Translations under genes and position numbers: made by a program
NCBI RefSeq assembly: GCF_000376825.1
Contig: NZ_AQXW01000004.1
Span: forward strand, 310,001-374,000
DNA: 64,000 nucleotides
Origin: Demetria terragena DSM 11295
GTDB taxonomy: Bacteria; Actinomycetota; Actinomycetes; Actinomycetales; Dermatophilaceae
Direction: 5' to 3'
Notes under the pieces: model-generated
Told to the model about the DNA's origin: nothing
Database searches by the model: none
What the model saw: only the letters and a program-made list of their open reading frames with translations
In this document: positions 23,229-32,152 of the stretch, piece by piece
Layout: each line of letters begins with the position of its first letter
How positions within the stretch are numbered: the stretch's first letter is position 1

Positions 23229-23287
23229 CCTAGGTGGCTGAGGGGGTTTCGCTGAGCGCACCGGGTTCGCCTCCTAGACTCGTGCGC

Positions 23288-24178
23288 ATGCCCGACGACA
23301 CGCCGCTCTCTCGAAACCTGCTGATCATTGGAGGCGCCGAGGACAAGGTCGGCCGGGTCACGATCTTGCGGAGGTTCGTACGCCTCGCGGGCGGCCGAAA
23401 GTCCAGTCTCGTCATCATCCCAACCGCGTCGTCGGTTCCGGACGAGGTCGTTGATGTCTACGGCACGATTTTCTCTCGGCTCGGTTCAGCGACCGTGGAC
23501 TCGGTCGACCCGCCGACTCGACAGGCCAGTTCGGATCCTGACCTGGTCGCGACGATCGACCGCGCGACAGGCGTATTCATCTCGGGCGGAAACCAACTCA
23601 AGTTGTCCCAGCTCATTGTGGGTACGCCACTGGGTGCCGCACTCCAGCGTGCCTACCAACGAGGCGCGGTCGTCGCGGGAACCTCGGCTGGAGCCTCGAT
23701 CATGAGCACCTTCATGATCTCGATGGGTGATGAAGGCGTGACCCCTCGCCAACGGTCCAGCCAACTCACGGCCGGTCTAGGTCTCCTCCCCGGCGTCATC
23801 ATCGATCAGCATTTCGACCAACGCGCTCGCTACGGCCGGCTGCTCTCCCTCGTCGCTGGCTCGCCGAACCTGCTGGGCATGGGCATCGATGAAGATACTG
23901 CCGCCGAGATTCAAGACGAACGCACGATGACCGTCGTCGGCTCGGGTGCAGTCTTCGTGGTCGATGCCCGCGCGGCCACCACCGATGCACATCTGGCCCG
24001 GCGCGACGCTCCGCTGCTCGTCAGTGGCGCCACCGTTCATACCCTCCCGCTTGGCGCGACCTTCGACCTGGAGACCGCCACGTTGACCTCCTTCGATGAG
24101 AACTACGCAGACGCCTCGATCGCCTCCTCGAGGGACCGGCACGACACCGCCACTGCGGCGGCCGCGCTCCACCACTGA
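23288..24178 (+). CDS. cphB: Cyanophycinase (peptidase S51)
   Basis: The 296-residue serine exopeptidase degrades cyanophycin to beta-Asp-Arg dipeptides. It shows NLLIIGGAEDKVG at the N-terminus, FISGGNQLKLSQ near residue 95, the nucleophile elbow GTSAGASIM near residue 130 and the DQHFDQRARYGRL stretch near residue 175. All are typical of CphB. No signal peptide is seen, so it acts inside the cell. It directly precedes cphA with a 35-base gap. ATG 23288 is preferred over GTG 23234 because homologues begin close to the GGAED motif. Confidence 0.93.
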   Translation: MPDDTPLSRNLLIIGGAEDKVGRVTILRRFVRLAGGRKSSLVIIPTASSVPDEVVDVYGTIFSRLGSATVDSVDPPTRQASSDPDLVATIDRATGVFISGGNQLKLSQLIVGTPLGAALQRAYQRGAVVAGTSAGASIMSTFMISMGDEGVTPRQRSSQLTAGLGLLPGVIIDQHFDQRARYGRLLSLVAGSPNLLGMGIDEDTAAEIQDERTMTVVGSGAVFVVDARAATTDAHLARRDAPLLVSGATVHTLPLGATFDLETATLTSFDENYADASIASSRDRHDTATAAAALHH

Positions 24179-24213: not shown

Positions 24214-27009
24214 GTGACCACCGATCGACCCGTACCCACCCGACCGGCCGCCCCCGAACTCCGGATCGTGGAGCAGCGGGTCTACCGCGGCCCCAACGTG
24301 TGGTCTTATGCGCCCGCGATTCACCTAGTCGTCGATCTCGGCGTGTTGGAGGAGTATCCCTCCGACACCCTTCCCCACTTCACCGACCAATTGCTGGAGT
24401 TCCTGCCCGGCCTCGACGGGCACACCTGCTCGCGCGGACACCGCGGCGGGTTCATCGAGCGGCTACGCGAAGGAACCTGGCTGGGGCACGTCGCGGAGCA
24501 CGTCGCGTTGCAGTTGCAGCAGGAAGTCGGCCATGACATGCGGCGGGGGAAAACCCGCGGGGTCAAGGACCGTCCCGGTGTCTACAACGTCATCTATGCC
24601 TTTACCGATGAGCGGGTGGCGCTCGCTGCAGGCGAGTTGGCAGTGCGACTGGTCAACCATTTGGTGCAACCCGAATCCGGATTCGACGTCGAGGAGGCGT
24701 TCGAGCAGTTCCAGTTGCGCGCGCAGCGGAGCACTTTTGGTCCATCGACTGCAGCCATTCTTGAGGAAGCCACCGCTCGCGATATTCCCTTCAGCCGGTT
24801 GAACGAACGCTCGCTGGTGCAGTTGGGCCAGGGTGTGCACGCCCAGCGCATCCGCGCGACGATGACCTCGCGGACCTCCGCGCTGGCCGTCGACATTGCA
24901 GGCGACAAAGACCTCACGACCCGACTTCTCAGTTCGGCGGGGTTGCCGGTTCCCAAGGCGCAGTCCGTACGCACCGCCGACGGTGCCGTCGAAGCCGCGC
25001 GACGTATCGGTTATCCGGTGGTGCTCAAACCACTGGACGGCAATCACGGGCGTGGAGTGTGCCTGGACCTCACGTCCGAGGAAGAGGTACGAGCGGCGTT
25101 TGAGATCGCCGTTTCCGAGACGAGGCGCGGCGTGGTGCAGGTCGAGTCGCACATCACCGGCAAGGACTATCGCTGCCTCATCGTCGGCGGACGCATGGTG
25201 GCTATTGCCGAGCGCGTCCCAGCCCACGTCGTCGGCGACGGGGAACACACTGTCACTGAACTCGTCGACATCACTAACGCTGATCCGCGTCGGGGATTCG
25301 GGCACGAGAAGGTCCTGACCCGAATCAAGGTTGACGACGATGCCATCGCGTTGGTGCGCGAGCAAGGCTTCGCGATGGATGAAGTGCCTCCCGTCGGCAC
25401 CATGGTCAAGATGGTGCTGACCGGCAACATGTCGACGGGCGGCATTAGCGTCGACCGCACCTTCGATGCGCACCCCGACAACGTCGAAATCGCCGAAGAG
25501 GCAGCACAACTCATTGGTTTGGACGTCGCGGGTATCGACTTCATCTGCCCAGATATTGCCGTGCCCGTCCGCGAAACCGGCGGTGCGATCTGTGAGGTCA
25601 ACGCGGCCCCAGGATTCCGGATGCACACCCATCCCACCGAGGGTGAACCGCAGTTCATTGCCAAGCCAGTGGTCGACTTGCTGTTCCCACCGGGGTCGCC
25701 ATCGCGTGTTCCGATCGTCGCGGTGACCGGCACCAACGGCAAGACGACGACATCGCGCATGCTTGCTCACATCATGAAGGGCCTGGGCCGCAAGGTTGGC
25801 ATGACCTCGACTGATGGCATCGTGATCGATGAGCGCTTGGTCATTAAGGCTGACGCGTCCGGCCCACGCTCGGCCAGGATGGTGTTGCAGAACCCGCGGG
25901 TCGACCTGGCCGTCATGGAGGTCGCGCGCGGCGGGATTCTGCGGGAGGGCTTGGGCTATGACCGCAACGATGTCGCGATCGTCACCAATGTCCAGGCCGA
26001 TCACCTGGGCCAACGCGGCATCGACACTGTCGAACAACTCGCACGGGTGAAATCCGTTGTTGTTGAAGCAGTTCCACGTGATGGCTTCGCAGTTCTCAAC
26101 GCTGATGACCCCCTCGTACGCGCGATGCGACGCCGCTGCTCCGGCACCGTGATCTGGTTCAGCCTGGCTGCACCCGGCAGCGATGTGCGCGAGTTCATCG
26201 ACGGGCAACTCCGGCGCGGAGCGCGAGCCGTTGTCCTCGATCCGAGCGAACGCGGCGAAATGATCGTCTTGAAACAGGGCAAGCGGTCCATGCCCTTGGC
26301 CTGGACGCACCTGCTGCCCTCAACCTTTGGCGGCACGGCGCGGATGAACGTGGCGAACGCCCTAGCAGCCACTGGCGCGGCTTTTGCGCTCGACGCGCCG
26401 CTGCACGACGTGCGCCAGGGTCTACGCACCTTCGACACCACCTACTACCAGTCCCCAGGCCGCCTCAATCGCCTTGATGTCAACAACATTGAAGTGTTCG
26501 TTGACTACTGCCACAACCCACCCGGAATGGAGCGGGTCGGCGAGTTCGTTGACGGCTATGTCAAGCACCGCCAAGGCTCGACGAGTCATCGCATTTCGCG
26601 GATCGGCATGGTCGGCGCGGCGGGCGACCGGCGCGATGACGACATCCGCGAACTCGGTCGAGTCGCTGCACGATTCTTCGATGTGCTGGTTGTCCGCGAG
26701 GACGAGAATCTGCGTCGGCGCACGCCGGGCGAGGCTGCCGAGCTTCTCGCAGAGGGTGCGCGCGAATCCATGGCCGACGGTGCCCGCTGCCGCGTCCTCG
26801 ACATCGTCCCTCAGGAGACCGAAGCGACCCGGCACGCGATTGTGCGGGCCAACGCCGGCGACCTAGTCATGTTGTGCGTCGACAAGCACGCGCAGGTGCT
26901 GGCGCAGTTGGAGGACTACACGCATCAAGCCACGGCCGGCAGCCGCTCTGACGAGGACCAAGTGGGCGACCCCGACCTGGACGCTGCGGACCTGCTCCCG
27001 AGATCTTGA
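24214..27009 (+). CDS. cphA: Cyanophycin synthetase (ATP-grasp plus Mur ligase)
   Basis: The 931-residue enzyme builds cyanophycin, a poly-Asp backbone with Arg side chains, using two ATP sites. The N domain has YRGPNVWSYAPAIHLVVDLG near residue 25. The ATP-grasp domain (about 160-480) has YPVVLKPLDGNHGRGVCLD near residue 270 and ICEVNAAPGFRMH near residue 465. The Mur-ligase domain begins about residue 495 with P-loop GTNGKTTTS near 507 and EVARGGILREGLG near 570. The length matches the family. GTG 24214 gives the complete N domain. A paralogue lacking the ATP-grasp part lies 1.3 kb away on the other strand. Confidence 0.95.
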   Translation: MTTDRPVPTRPAAPELRIVEQRVYRGPNVWSYAPAIHLVVDLGVLEEYPSDTLPHFTDQLLEFLPGLDGHTCSRGHRGGFIERLREGTWLGHVAEHVALQLQQEVGHDMRRGKTRGVKDRPGVYNVIYAFTDERVALAAGELAVRLVNHLVQPESGFDVEEAFEQFQLRAQRSTFGPSTAAILEEATARDIPFSRLNERSLVQLGQGVHAQRIRATMTSRTSALAVDIAGDKDLTTRLLSSAGLPVPKAQSVRTADGAVEAARRIGYPVVLKPLDGNHGRGVCLDLTSEEEVRAAFEIAVSETRRGVVQVESHITGKDYRCLIVGGRMVAIAERVPAHVVGDGEHTVTELVDITNADPRRGFGHEKVLTRIKVDDDAIALVREQGFAMDEVPPVGTMVKMVLTGNMSTGGISVDRTFDAHPDNVEIAEEAAQLIGLDVAGIDFICPDIAVPVRETGGAICEVNAAPGFRMHTHPTEGEPQFIAKPVVDLLFPPGSPSRVPIVAVTGTNGKTTTSRMLAHIMKGLGRKVGMTSTDGIVIDERLVIKADASGPRSARMVLQNPRVDLAVMEVARGGILREGLGYDRNDVAIVTNVQADHLGQRGIDTVEQLARVKSVVVEAVPRDGFAVLNADDPLVRAMRRRCSGTVIWFSLAAPGSDVREFIDGQLRRGARAVVLDPSERGEMIVLKQGKRSMPLAWTHLLPSTFGGTARMNVANALAATGAAFALDAPLHDVRQGLRTFDTTYYQSPGRLNRLDVNNIEVFVDYCHNPPGMERVGEFVDGYVKHRQGSTSHRISRIGMVGAAGDRRDDDIRELGRVAARFFDVLVVREDENLRRRTPGEAAELLAEGARESMADGARCRVLDIVPQETEATRHAIVRANAGDLVMLCVDKHAQVLAQLEDYTHQATAGSRSDEDQVGDPDLDAADLLPRS

Positions 27010-27048: not shown

Positions 27049-27699
27049 TTACGCCAGTGCCGACTGCCAGAACTGCGCTTCACATCGTGTTGCGGTCGCA
27101 AACGTGCGCTCCAGTTGTGAACGGCGAGACGAGCTGAGGGGCTGATCCATCAAATCATCCAGTCGTGCCGTCGCCACGTCTGCGGAATGTTGGTACGCCT
27201 CGCCCGCGTACTCAGCAATCCATTCGCCAAACCGGTGTTCAGGGTTCGCCGCTAGCCGCGGAGCAAGCGCCTGGCCAATCTCGGCGTAGCCGATGACGCA
27301 AGGGGCAAGAGCGACATTCAGATCGAGCAGGTCGCCACTCATGCCGACATCGAGCACGAACCTCGTGTAGGCCACTGTCGCGGACTTCTCCTCCGCCATA
27401 GCGAGTTCGTCTGGCGTCAGATCCCAACGGGCACAGAGCCTTTCGTGCAGGGGTAGTTCATTAAGGATGGCGCCCAACGCCTCGTGCGCGCCCCGCAGGT
27501 CGTCCACTGACTGCGCCTTGTAACCCGATAGGGCATAGGCGCGAGCAAACTGGATCAAGAACAGGTAGTCCTGGACGAGATAGTCCTTGAAAGCGCCCTC
27601 GGGCAGGCTGCCATCGCCGAGACAACGGACGAATTCATGGTCGACATACGCCTGCCACGTCGGCGCACACGCATCGCGAAGCTCAGCGAACAGTCCCAT
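27049..27699 (-). CDS. tenA: TenA-family aminopyrimidine aminohydrolase, Cys-type (TenA_C)
   Basis: The 216-residue all-helical protein resembles thiaminase II/TenA, which hydrolyses amino-HMP to HMP for thiamin salvage. The nucleophile Cys is in LAPCVIGYAEIG near residue 135, and the late Glu is in EYAGEAYQHS near residue 170-180. GAFKDYLVQDYLFLIQFARAYAL near residue 45 is also typical. ATG 27699 gives the usual TenA N-terminus and overlaps the 3' end of the neighbouring tenA-like gene by 17 bases. No TPP riboswitch was recognised upstream. Confidence 0.9.
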   Translation of the reverse strand: MGLFAELRDACAPTWQAYVDHEFVRCLGDGSLPEGAFKDYLVQDYLFLIQFARAYALSGYKAQSVDDLRGAHEALGAILNELPLHERLCARWDLTPDELAMAEEKSATVAYTRFVLDVGMSGDLLDLNVALAPCVIGYAEIGQALAPRLAANPEHRFGEWIAEYAGEAYQHSADVATARLDDLMDQPLSSSRRSQLERTFATATRCEAQFWQSALA

Positions 27700-28345
27700 C
27701 CTCAGCTCCCTCGTAAGCCGCTTCAAAGAACGCGAGCTCCAGATCAACCGCACGCGTGAAAAGCGTTGTCACATTTGGACTTTCCAGGCCTACGCGATCG
27801 AGCTCAGCACGCAGGAGCGAGACGATCGGCCCCAACGACGGCTCGTCATGGATCTCGATCCACTCCGCATGAACGAAGGAGGAGGGACGCCTGCTTGGAC
27901 AGCGCACTGCCCAGTCCAGATAGAGCCACTCGGCGACAAGCAGCACCGTGAGCGCACTTGCGTAATCGCGGCTGTCCGCCGCCTCCTGCATGAGAGCAAT
28001 GAACCCTGAGGTCGGTGGCGCATCGGGTGTCGCGCTCCGCACGTCCTCACTGATACCGAGCGCGTCGAATGCCCGGAGGAAGTAGTCGTTCTCACCTCCA
28101 CACACCACGCCGAGGTAACGACCGAAAGCCAGTCTGGCGACCAGGGTGTCGGCAGTGGTGACAGCCGCTCCGAGAAGCCCGACGAATGCATCCAGAAAGC
28201 GATGATCCTGGACCAGATAACGTCCCATGACCACGTCAGGGACCGTCCCGGCCCCGAGTTCCTCAACAAAACGATGAGTCACGGCGGCTTCCCAGGTCGA
28301 TGCGTTCGCATCACGAAGGTCGCCGGTAAAGCCATTGTCAGACAT
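27683..28345 (-). CDS. TenA-family protein lacking the Cys (TenA_E type)
   Basis: The 220-residue protein has the TenA fold pattern (TWEAAVTHRFVEELGAGTVP, RYLVQDHRFLDAFVGLLGAAV). Where TenA_C has Pro-Cys, it reads LVAEWLYLDWA near residue 142, so the catalytic Cys is absent and a Glu-Trp takes that place. This is the hallmark of the TenA_E group, whose plant members hydrolyse formylamino-HMP and amino-HMP. It lies between the CphA-like Mur ligase (13-base gap) and the Cys-type tenA (17-base overlap), so the pair is translated together. Confidence 0.85.
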   Translation of the reverse strand: MSDNGFTGDLRDANASTWEAAVTHRFVEELGAGTVPDVVMGRYLVQDHRFLDAFVGLLGAAVTTADTLVARLAFGRYLGVVCGGENDYFLRAFDALGISEDVRSATPDAPPTSGFIALMQEAADSRDYASALTVLLVAEWLYLDWAVRCPSRRPSSFVHAEWIEIHDEPSLGPIVSLLRAELDRVGLESPNVTTLFTRAVDLELAFFEAAYEGAEDGTVR

Positions 28346-28358
28346 GAATATTCAGTCC

Positions 28359-30224
28359 CTAGCCGCTGATCAAGCTGTCCAGAATCTGCAGTGCGGCGTC
28401 CTGGTCCCCGAAGCGTAGGCGCCTGGCCGCCTCAGCGACCTGCTCTCGGTGGTATGCGTCCAGTTGCGTGGGTGCAACCGCGATGACGTCGTGTTCCACG
28501 GCGTGCGCAGCGACGACCTTCTGCCGGAGTGCTTCCGCGTCATCAACGCTCGCCCCGTGTTGGATCAACCAGTCGTGAACCTGCTCCTGGTGCTCGTGCA
28601 CCATCACGGGCAAGACATCGCCGTCCACCGCGGTGGCCAACATTCCCTTAACTGCCGCGAGTTCGGTGTCCCACACCGCAACTGGAGCTGCGCCGGCCCG
28701 CGCGAGTCCCTCCACGAAGAAGTGCGTCAGTTCTTCACGCGTACGACCACGCAGGTACTTCTCTTTGTGCTCGATGTGCACAAGGTCGGCTCGAATGCCA
28801 GCCATCTCCCCCAGATCGCGCAGGATGTCGTCGGTTCGGTCACCACCCGTACCCAAGCCGAGCACGATCCGCTGACCGGTAGCGCGCAGACCTTCGGCCA
28901 CCGTGAGCAGCGCATCCAATCCACTCTCGTTGTGCGCCATGTCGAGGACCAATGTCGCGACTTCACCGCGCGGCAGTGGAACGCTATAGACGTTCATCCG
29001 GCCCGGATTGAGTCGCGCATCCGGGGTGAAAGTGCGCAACCCGTCGATGACCGCCTCGACGGGGAGTCCAAGACCAAGCGCACCAGCGGCACCGGCCAGG
29101 GCGTTGGCGACGTTGTGCTTTGACAGACCAGCCAGCGTCATCGGGATGTCCGTGACCGGCAGCAAATGCTCGGGGTCATGGCCCGGGCGCAGCACCACAA
29201 TGTCCCCGTCCATCACCGTGATTCCACGTCCGCCCGCCTGCACGGCCTCGCGCAACGACGGGGAATCTGGATCGGGAGTGAAACACCAGACACGCGACTT
29301 GGTCCCGGTACGCATCGCCCAGACGCGCGGGTCATCGCCGTTGAGGACAGTCCATCCGCCAGGCTTCGTGACGCGCGTGATGATCGCTTTGACCTCAGCG
29401 AGCTGGTCGAGCGTCTCGATGCCACCTTCGCCCAGGTGGTCGGCGCTCACATTGGTGACGACGCTGACGTCGTTGACCGACGTACCCAGGCCGCGGCGCA
29501 ACATGCCGCCTCGCGCTGTTTCAAGCACAGCGATCTCAACGCCTGCGTCCAGCACGGCGCGCGCGCCGGCTGGGCCGGAGTAGTCACCCTTTTCGATGAG
29601 TTCGCCCTGCACGAGCACGCCGTCGGTCGAACTCCAGCCCGTACGCCGCCCGGCCGTCATGCTGATGTGCGCCACGAGCCGGGTCGTCGTGGTCTTCCCG
29701 TTGGTTCCAGTGATTGCAATGACCGGCACCTTCGGGACCTGCCGGCGCGGCGCTCGTTCTACCGGAACCGCCGCAAGCGAACGGGCAGCATCCTCGAAAA
29801 GCGCTGTGTCAGCGCCTGATTCAAGGATGCTGGCAAGGAGTGGGCCAAGCCCATTGCCGATCGCGGTAGCACGCGCCCTGGAGTTCCACGGGACCGCGAC
29901 GACGACCTGCCCGGGCTCTGCCGTCGACCGCACCCGCACCCCCAGCCGCGTGCTGCCAGCAGCCTTAGCGACCCTTCGAACAACCCGCTCTACTAGTCGC
30001 AGCAGGAAACGCCCTCGGGTCTCGGTTCCGGCTTCACCGGGTGCAGAGCGAGGCAGTCCCAGCTGAGCCGCGATTTCCTGAAGCCGACTCTCCTCCGCAT
30101 CGAGGTACCCAGTCAGGCTGAGCGATACCCGCAGGGCAGGTCGGGTGAAGTACAGATTCGGACCATCGAGAAGCCGGAGATCCGTGGTGGCCACGGACGT
30201 TCCCGGGGTGTCACGCGCTGACAT
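28359..30224 (-). CDS. CphA-like Mur ligase family protein without ATP-grasp domain
   Basis: The 621-residue protein starts with LRLLDGPNLYFTRPALRVSLSL, which resembles the N domain of the nearby cyanophycin synthetase (YRGPNVWSYAPAIHLVVDL). After about 165 residues it goes straight into a Mur-ligase domain: P-loop TGTNGKTTTTR near residue 172, ETARGGMLRRGLG near residue 245, NVSADHLGEGG near residue 265 and LVLDMAHNESGLDAL near residue 440. The roughly 320-residue ATP-grasp domain of CphA is missing. It could amidate or ligate an amino acid to a carboxylate, but the substrate is unknown. It shares a tight operon with fabI upstream and two tenA genes downstream. Confidence 0.85.
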   Translation of the reverse strand: MSARDTPGTSVATTDLRLLDGPNLYFTRPALRVSLSLTGYLDAEESRLQEIAAQLGLPRSAPGEAGTETRGRFLLRLVERVVRRVAKAAGSTRLGVRVRSTAEPGQVVVAVPWNSRARATAIGNGLGPLLASILESGADTALFEDAARSLAAVPVERAPRRQVPKVPVIAITGTNGKTTTTRLVAHISMTAGRRTGWSSTDGVLVQGELIEKGDYSGPAGARAVLDAGVEIAVLETARGGMLRRGLGTSVNDVSVVTNVSADHLGEGGIETLDQLAEVKAIITRVTKPGGWTVLNGDDPRVWAMRTGTKSRVWCFTPDPDSPSLREAVQAGGRGITVMDGDIVVLRPGHDPEHLLPVTDIPMTLAGLSKHNVANALAGAAGALGLGLPVEAVIDGLRTFTPDARLNPGRMNVYSVPLPRGEVATLVLDMAHNESGLDALLTVAEGLRATGQRIVLGLGTGGDRTDDILRDLGEMAGIRADLVHIEHKEKYLRGRTREELTHFFVEGLARAGAAPVAVWDTELAAVKGMLATAVDGDVLPVMVHEHQEQVHDWLIQHGASVDDAEALRQKVVAAHAVEHDVIAVAPTQLDAYHREQVAEAARRLRFGDQDAALQILDSLISG

Positions 30225-30246: not shown

Positions 30247-31008
30247 CTACTGCCCCATCGCGTGCACGCCACCATCAACATGCACGATCTCGCCTGTCGT
30301 CGCGGGGAACCAGTCCGACATCAGCGCCGCGCAGGCCCGAGCGGCTGGTTCGGGGTCGGATATATCCCACCCCAACGGCGCCCGGTCGTCCCAGATCTCC
30401 TCGAACTTGACGAAGTCGGGAATCGACCTGGCCGCGGTGGTGCGAATGGGCCCGGCTGCGACCAGGTTGCACCGAATGCCCTGCGCTCCCAGATCGCGCG
30501 CGAGATAGCGGTTGGTCGACTCGAACGCCGCCTTGGCGACGCCCATCCAGTCATAGACCGGCCAGGCGAATTTTGCATCGAAGGTCAGGCCCACCAGAGA
30601 AGCCTTGTCGGTCATCAACGGCAGCGTCGCGGTCGCTAGTGCCTTAAGCGAGTACGCCGACGTGTGGACCGCGGTGCTGACGTCTTCCCACGTGCCGGAC
30701 ATAAAGTCGAATGCTCCCGGCGGCGCGAAGCCGATGGAGTGCAAGACACCGTCGAGGTGGTCAACCTGCTCCCCGACGCGCTCCGCGAGCGAGTCGAGAT
30801 GCTCCTGGTCGGTGACATCGAGCTCCAGGACCTCGGGCGTGCTCGGGAGCCGCTTGGCAATGGTCTTCGTGATCTTCATCGTGCGGCCAAAGGAGGTCAG
30901 CACGACCTCTGCGCCCTCTTGCTGCGCGAGTTTGGCGACGTGAAAGGCGATCGATGAGTCCATCAGGACTCCGGTCACCAGAATCTTCTTTCCTTCAAGC
31001 AAGCCCAT
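30247..31008 (-). CDS. fabI: Enoyl-ACP reductase (NADH), InhA/FabI type
   Basis: The 253-residue short-chain dehydrogenase performs the last reduction of fatty-acid elongation. It has FabI hallmarks: GKKILVTGVLMDSSIAFHVAKL at the N-terminus, LHSIGFAPPGAF near residue 95, the catalytic Tyr/Lys pair in WPVYDWMGVAKAAFES near residue 155 and a C-terminal GEIVHVDGGVHAMGQ. The sequence is closer to mycobacterial InhA than to E. coli FabI in the catalytic segment (YDWMGVAK). ATG 31008 follows GGGAGA. It sits 49 bases after fabG, the mabA-inhA arrangement. Confidence 0.93.
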   Translation of the reverse strand: MGLLEGKKILVTGVLMDSSIAFHVAKLAQQEGAEVVLTSFGRTMKITKTIAKRLPSTPEVLELDVTDQEHLDSLAERVGEQVDHLDGVLHSIGFAPPGAFDFMSGTWEDVSTAVHTSAYSLKALATATLPLMTDKASLVGLTFDAKFAWPVYDWMGVAKAAFESTNRYLARDLGAQGIRCNLVAAGPIRTTAARSIPDFVKFEEIWDDRAPLGWDISDPEPAARACAALMSDWFPATTGEIVHVDGGVHAMGQ

Positions 31009-31057
31009 CAATGATCTCCCGTGAGGTGTACGGATAGTTGGTTGGTTGGTTGGTCGC

Positions 31058-32152
<1,095 letters not shown>

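What the first reader, a model, noticed from the sequence alone, without database searches (positions are those of the whole stretch)
28359..30224. A CphA-like Mur ligase without the ATP-grasp domain, beside a full cyanophycin locus
The protein keeps a CphA-type N domain (GPNLYFTRPALRV against GPNVWSYAPAIHL in CphA) fused directly to an intact Mur-ligase domain, while the roughly 320-residue ATP-grasp part that adds Asp in CphA is gone. With full cphA and cphB 1.3 kb away, it may amidate or ligate an amino acid to the same polymer, or make a different peptide. I know CphA2 as a truncated CphA, but that form keeps ATP-grasp, so this architecture differs.
Basis: partly seen in the sequence, partly recalled or inferred. 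Interest (0 to 1): 0.75.

Follow-up and report, generated by a model that had tools for sequence, protein, structure and literature searches.

The report
Companion ligase of cyanophycin synthetase
Beside the genes that make and break down the nitrogen-storage polymer cyanophycin sits a second, shorter relative of the polymer-making enzyme that keeps two of its three domains and was never found without the full enzyme in the genomes surveyed, so these bacteria probably use an extra, uncharacterised ligation step in cyanophycin metabolism.

Summary
The gene (28359-30224, minus strand, 621 aa) encodes a CphA-type N domain joined directly to a complete Mur-ligase (M) domain, with no ATP-grasp domain. 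A predicted structure of the N domain alone matches only cyanophycin synthetases among solved structures. The gene lies 1.35 kb from intact cphA and cphB.

It is not a truncated CphA. It belongs to an old sister lineage ("X" here) whose M domain forms its own clade, with every ATP and catalytic residue invariant in 38 relatives. It differs from CphA at fixed positions: the N-domain metallopeptidase motif is gone (0/38 against 23/23), N-domain charge is reversed, the acceptor-loop Ser is Gly, and the lid loop that in MurE binds the incoming amino acid is rebuilt.

In surveyed Actinomycetota and Chloroflexota, all 48 genomes with X also have full CphA. In Actinomycetota only one CphA genome of 33 lacks X, and that assembly is 61% complete. 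A related gene follows cphA in alphaproteobacterial cphB-cphA operons.

Best explanation: an active ATP-dependent ligase that modifies cyanophycin or its precursors, probably with an amine other than arginine. Substrate and product are inferred, not shown. I found no published description.

The parts
28359..30224 (-). X gene: N-domain + Mur-ligase protein without ATP-grasp domain (621 aa, P0001)
   Evidence: ORF and translation; Pfam/NCBIfam; AF2 model pLDDT 89.8 with CphA1 as top Foldseek hit, TM-score 0.74 by query length
29751..30224 (-). CphA-type N domain, residues 1-158, without the Cx19HxxEH metallopeptidase motif, net positive charge
   Evidence: hhalign, model and Foldseek of the domain alone, motif and charge counts
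30135..30164 (-). GPNLYFTRPA motif, residues 21-30; the corresponding CphA loop packs on the M domain
   Evidence: G21 P22 N23 F26 P29 invariant in 38 relatives; role of the loop in SuCphA1 from PMC9262961
28500..29750 (-). Mur-ligase M core and lid, residues 159-575, all ATP/catalytic residues kept
29682..29708 (-). P-loop GTNGKTTTT, residues 173-181
   Evidence: K177 38/38
28362..28499 (-). C-terminal tail, residues 576-621, helical and lower confidence; Intrasporangiaceae relatives have a TPR_5 domain here
24214..27009 (+). cphA: full cyanophycin synthetase (931 aa), N, G and M active-site motifs intact
   Evidence: TIGR02068 1146 bits; alignment to SuCphA1; motif residues invariant
23234..24178 (+). 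cphB: cyanophycinase (TIGR02069)
27683..28345 (-). TenA-like protein between X and cphA; not found at the other X loci
27049..27753 (-). TenA (TIGR04306 over cut-off) between X and cphA; not found at the other X loci
30247..31083 (-). fabI-like gene 22 nt upstream of X on the same strand; conserved beside X in Dermacoccaceae and Intrasporangiaceae but not in Chloroflexota

Best explanation
X is a catalytically active accessory ligase of cyanophycin metabolism. Shown here: it has a CphA N domain and a complete MurE-like M domain, keeps all ATP-binding and catalytic residues, and was found only in genomes that also have CphA, mostly beside it. Inferred: the N domain holds a cyanophycin chain or chain end (or docks on CphA); the M domain phosphorylates a carboxylate of it with ATP and joins an amine to the acyl phosphate. 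Because the acceptor loop and the lid loop that reads the incoming amino acid differ from CphA in a fixed way, the amine is probably not arginine. X would thus modify, cap or initiate the polymer after or beside CphA. It does not replace a lost CphA function, since the partner CphA is intact.
For: Catalytic set invariant in 38/38 relatives: P-loop K177, Mg-binding E235, D262-H263 (SuCphA1 D585-H586, whose mutation kills the M site), K279, R409, H431. N domain homologous to CphA only; whole-model top hits are CphA1, aligned over both N and M. Co-occurrence: 32/32 Actinomycetota and 16/16 Chloroflexota genomes with X have CphA; 61 of 65 X loci carry cphA in the fetched stretch, tail to tail with X. 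Alphaproteobacterial cphB-cphA-'Mur ligase' operons have a relative with the same specific residues, starting 12-14 nt after cphA. Specificity changes: CphA Ser542 (SuCphA1) is Gly in X and in that relative; CphA Asp830 (20/20) is not kept and the loop is one residue longer with an invariant Tyr; CphA Asp890 (18/20) is lost; the loop maps to the DNPR motif of E. coli MurE. Partner CphA has all three sites.
Against: No biochemical data. The arginine-binding residues of the CphA M domain have not been shown in the papers I could read, so the 'not arginine' inference rests on the MurE analogy. X is convergent with cphBA in Actinomycetota and next to fabGI there, so it is not in the cphBA operon in this lineage. 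About eight Chloroflexota genomes have CphA without X, so X is not needed for cyanophycin as such.
Confidence: 0.48

Rival explanations
1. X does the same chemistry as the CphA M domain (arginine onto an Asp beta-carboxylate) but on free or short substrates, so that it makes primers or repairs bare Asp residues.
For: M domain about 37% identical to CphA M with the same catalytic residues and the conserved Arg of the DNPR-like loop; CphA needs primers of at least (beta-Asp-Arg)-Asp (PMC9262961).
Against: The partner CphA already has an arginine-adding M domain and an intact Cx19HxxEH primer-making site. Residues conserved in CphA at the acceptor and incoming-amino-acid loops are changed in X in a fixed way across three phyla.
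Confidence: 0.2
2. X is mainly a partner or regulator of CphA (mixed oligomer, chain-length control or granule scaffold); catalysis is secondary.
For: X N domains are net positive (+2 to +18) and CphA N domains net negative (-1 to -11), which would suit direct contact; many X proteins carry a TPR_5 domain; CphA1 is a tetramer built through N, G and M contacts (PMC9427784).
Against: Invariant catalytic residues argue for use of the active site.
Confidence: 0.15
3. X makes a separate small peptide not derived from cyanophycin and is linked to cphA only by shared nitrogen regulation.
For: Substrate loops differ from CphA; X is transcribed convergently to cphBA and beside fabGI in this lineage.
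Against: The CphA-only type of N domain is kept; no genome with X lacked CphA; operon with cphBA in Alphaproteobacteria.
Confidence: 0.12
4. X is a decaying truncated CphA copy with no function.
For: The architecture equals CphA minus its G domain; Deinococcus has CphA-derived 'Mur ligase' genes that do fall inside CphA in the tree.
Against: X is its own clade across Actinomycetota and Chloroflexota (98% SH-aLRT) with an intact active site and a long conserved ORF.
Confidence: 0.03

Closest known systems
Cyanophycin synthetase 1 (CphA1; TIGR02068, PF18921 N domain)
   Same: N-domain fold with the GPN loop; M domain 37% identical; same ATP and DH catalytic residues; top structural match
   Different: No ATP-grasp G domain; no Cx19HxxEH; N-domain charge reversed; S542G, N406, YLRGR loop; below PF18921 and TIGR02068 cut-offs; separate clade
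CphA2 (cyanobacterial beta-Asp-Arg polymerase)
   Same: A reduced CphA-family protein whose N domain lacks the HxxEH motif (PMC9262961)
   Different: CphA2 keeps ATP-grasp and lacks the M P-loop and lid (PMC9427784); X is the reverse
MurE and other Mur ligases
   Same: M core and lid fold, P-loop, catalytic residues; structural hits after CphA
   Different: The N domain is not a Mur-type N domain; NCBIfam MurE cut-offs far from met
DUF4938 (PF16292) in Chloroflexota
   Same: N-terminal GPNIYY motif and a weak Mur-middle-like stretch
   Different: No P-loop; 11 of 18 surveyed genomes with it lack CphA
'Shorter copy of cphA' in Tetrasphaera MAGs (PMC10687191)
   Same: Neighbouring shorter cphA-annotated gene in the same bacterial group, expressed less than the long copy; Tetrasphaera/Nostocoides loci here carry CphA plus X
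   Different: That paper treats it as a second cphA; whether it is X was not checked on its MAGs

Membership tests
CphA1 | N domain of the Cyanophycin_syn type | tested here: met
   hhalign E 3e-6, Foldseek top 15 all CphA; PF18921 itself does not reach E 0.1
CphA1 | ATP-grasp G domain that adds Asp | tested here: not met
   Absent from sequence and models
CphA1 | Complete Mur-ligase M domain | tested here: met
   Residues 159-548, catalytic residues invariant
CphA1 | TIGR02068 equivalog cut-off of 850 bits | tested here: not met
   364 bits
CphA1 | Cx19HxxEH N-domain site (present in most, not all, CphA1) | tested here: not met
   HxxEH 0/38 X against Cx19HxxEH 23/23 partner CphA
CphA1 | Polymerises Asp and Arg | not testable with these tools
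   Needs purified enzyme
CphA2 | ATP-grasp kept, M P-loop and lid lost | tested here: not met
   P-loop and lid present, no ATP-grasp
MurE | Mur-type N-terminal UDP-binding domain | tested here: not met
   No Mur N domain among matches to the N-domain model
MurE | NCBIfam MurE cut-offs | tested here: not met
   About 82-89 bits against 257-476 for the best MurE models

The most novel reading that the evidence does not exclude
X is a third biosynthetic enzyme of cyanophycin metabolism, alongside CphA1 and CphA2, that ligates an amine other than arginine to the polymer or its ends, so that Actinomycetota, Chloroflexota and Alphaproteobacteria that carry it store a chemically distinct cyanophycin.
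Probability: 0.33. Interest if true: 0.8.

Novelty: new variant of a known kind. Interest (0 to 1): 0.63.

Why it matters
Cyanophycin is a widespread nitrogen store with industrial interest, and its synthesis is described as complete with CphA1 (plus CphA2 in some cyanobacteria). A conserved companion found with nearly every CphA surveyed in Actinomycetota implies a missing step: a modification, an end cap, a primer or a regulator. It names a gene to delete and an enzyme to assay in culturable hosts such as Knoellia, Terrabacter or Flexivirga, and it warns that a short 'cphA' copy in activated-sludge surveys may not be a polymerase. The N-M layout also bears on whether CphA arose by inserting an ATP-grasp domain between N and M, which the present tree does not decide.

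Tried and rejected
Recent truncation of CphA: rejected by the M-domain tree. Deinococcus plasmid 'Mur ligase' genes as orthologues: rejected, they fall inside CphA and carry a truncated or degenerate G region. DUF4938 as a CphA-linked form of X: rejected, 11 of its 18 genomes lack CphA. A functional link between X and the TenA pair: rejected, TenA was not found at the other X loci. Replacement of a defective CphA M domain: rejected, the partner CphA is intact. Tandem-duplication repeats and promoter or terminator signals around the gene: nothing beyond chance. PMC9974463 is not held. Literature: nothing naming this architecture in the held library; subscription papers, including the original survey of neighbouring cphA genes (Fuser and Steinbuchel 2007, cited in PMC10687191), could not be read.

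Full report
What is there. The gene runs from 30224 to 28359 on the minus strand and encodes 621 residues. Pfam sees only the Mur-ligase middle and C-terminal domains. TIGR02068 (cyanophycin synthetase) matches residues 159-548 to its M-domain part at 364 bits, far below its cut-off of 850. Residues 1-158 have no Pfam match. Profile-profile comparison of 38 relatives with 23 CphA proteins shows that this part is a CphA N domain: 138 collinear columns, probability 88%, E 3e-6, and nothing against the CphA G or M domain. The N-domain profile also finds CphA N domains by itself in whole-genome searches. A model of the whole protein has mean pLDDT 89.8 and its best PDB match is CphA1, TM-score 0.74 by query length, over an alignment long enough to span N, the missing G domain and M. 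A model of the N domain alone (pLDDT 93) matches CphA1 and CphA2 in the 15 best hits and then only noise.

Neighbours. cphB and a full-length cphA with intact N, G and M motifs lie on the opposite strand, pointing at the gene. Two TenA-like genes fill the 1.35 kb between them; tblastn found no TenA at the other X loci. Upstream on the same strand, 22 nt away, is a fabI-like gene preceded by a fabG-like gene; this order is kept in Dermacoccaceae and Intrasporangiaceae but not in Chloroflexota.

Relatives and co-occurrence. One scan gave 79 loci, of which 65 carry a clear relative of the whole protein; 61 of the 65 have cphA in the fetched stretch. Of the other four, L048 has a CphA piece cut by the contig end, L058 and L063 stop at contig ends, and L045's genome has CphA on another contig. 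In an even draw of 198 genomes of the window's order, 13 have the N domain of this family and the same 13 have CphA. In 347 genomes of the phylum, 23 have it and all 23 have full-length CphA; the one further CphA genome, G478, is 61% complete. In 221 Chloroflexota genomes, 16 have a clear copy and all 16 have CphA. Together, allowing for four genomes drawn in both actinobacterial sets, this is 48 of 48. These genomes are related, so the counts are not independent events, but they span many families and two phyla. CphA without X does occur, in about eight Chloroflexota genomes; in the two I checked by tblastn around cphA there is no X.

A third group. On plasmids of Shinella, Ruegeria and a Roseateles record the order is cphB, cphA, 'Mur ligase family protein' on one strand, with 12-14 nt between the last two genes. 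That protein (578-601 aa) begins with a GPN- or GPG-containing region that my N-domain profile matches only marginally, and has a full M domain. It shares with X the residues that separate X from CphA. Deinococcus 'Mur ligase' genes are different: they are CphA derivatives.

Evolution. In a tree of M domains, X is one clade (98% SH-aLRT), CphA with the Deinococcus genes another (99%), and the alphaproteobacterial companion a third, with MurE as outgroup. The order of the three is not resolved. X is therefore an old sister of CphA rather than a recent truncation. Whether N-M is the ancestral layout into which ATP-grasp was inserted cannot be told.

Active site. P-loop, Mg-binding, DH, lysine, lid Arg and His residues are conserved throughout the X proteins (K177, E235, D262, H263, K279, R409, H431 in 38/38). 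D262-H263 are the equivalents of SuCphA1 D585-H586, whose mutation inactivates the M domain (PMC9262961). The N-domain metallopeptidase motif is absent (HxxEH 0/38) while all 23 partner CphA proteins have Cx19HxxEH, and the N-domain net charge is +2 to +18 in X against -1 to -11 in CphA. In the acceptor loop, CphA Ser542 (SuCphA1 numbering, 20/20) is Gly in X (38/38) and in the alphaproteobacterial companion (3/3). In the lid loop that maps to the DNPR motif of E. coli MurE, X has one extra residue, an invariant Tyr before LRGR, and no conserved counterpart of the invariant CphA Asp830; near the C-terminus CphA Asp890 (18/20) is also lost. The role of DNPR in reading the incoming amino acid in MurE is established knowledge, not tested here. 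By that analogy X probably takes an amine other than arginine; this is inference.

Reading. The most economical account is an active accessory ligase that works on cyanophycin or its building blocks beside an intact CphA. An arginine ligase for primers, a partner or regulator of CphA, and an unrelated peptide ligase remain possible.

Known or new. The RefSeq label for the alphaproteobacterial relatives is 'Mur ligase family protein'. A bioinformatic survey of cyanophycin gene clusters (PMC10206079) does not use the word 'ligase'. A metatranscriptome paper (PMC10687191) reports two neighbouring cphA copies in Tetrasphaera MAGs, the shorter expressed less; this may be X, but I did not check those MAGs. 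No held paper names the architecture, but most subscription papers could not be searched.

Noticed in passing
27049-27753 and 27683-28345 (minus strand): Two overlapping TenA-family genes, one over the thiaminase II cut-off and one divergent, inserted between cphA and X; tblastn did not find them at the other X loci.
   Followed up: partly
L118:5015-6022, L119:4080-5108; G575, G642, G690 and others: DUF4938 (PF16292) proteins of Chloroflexota begin with the same GPN motif and have a Mur-middle-like stretch without a P-loop: a possible pseudo-ligase. 11 of 18 genomes with it lack CphA.
   Followed up: partly
G208, G223, G262, G326, G379 and others: Short ORFs of about 140-350 aa in several Actinomycetota families match PF18921 weakly (20-54 bits) without a full-length CphA match: stand-alone N-domain-like proteins.
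   Followed up: no
L129:3702-6218 and L130:4026-6200 (Deinococcus plasmids): CphA derivatives with a truncated or degenerate ATP-grasp region and a changed HxxEH motif, annotated as Mur ligases, in genomes that also have full cphA: an independent case of CphA reduction.
   Followed up: partly
L011:2319-4490, L030:7989-10193 and other Intrasporangiaceae X genes: X carries a C-terminal TPR_5 domain of about 120 residues in Intrasporangiaceae and, by length and sequence, most Dermacoccaceae; the window's copy has only a short tail and Chloroflexota copies lack it.
   Followed up: partly
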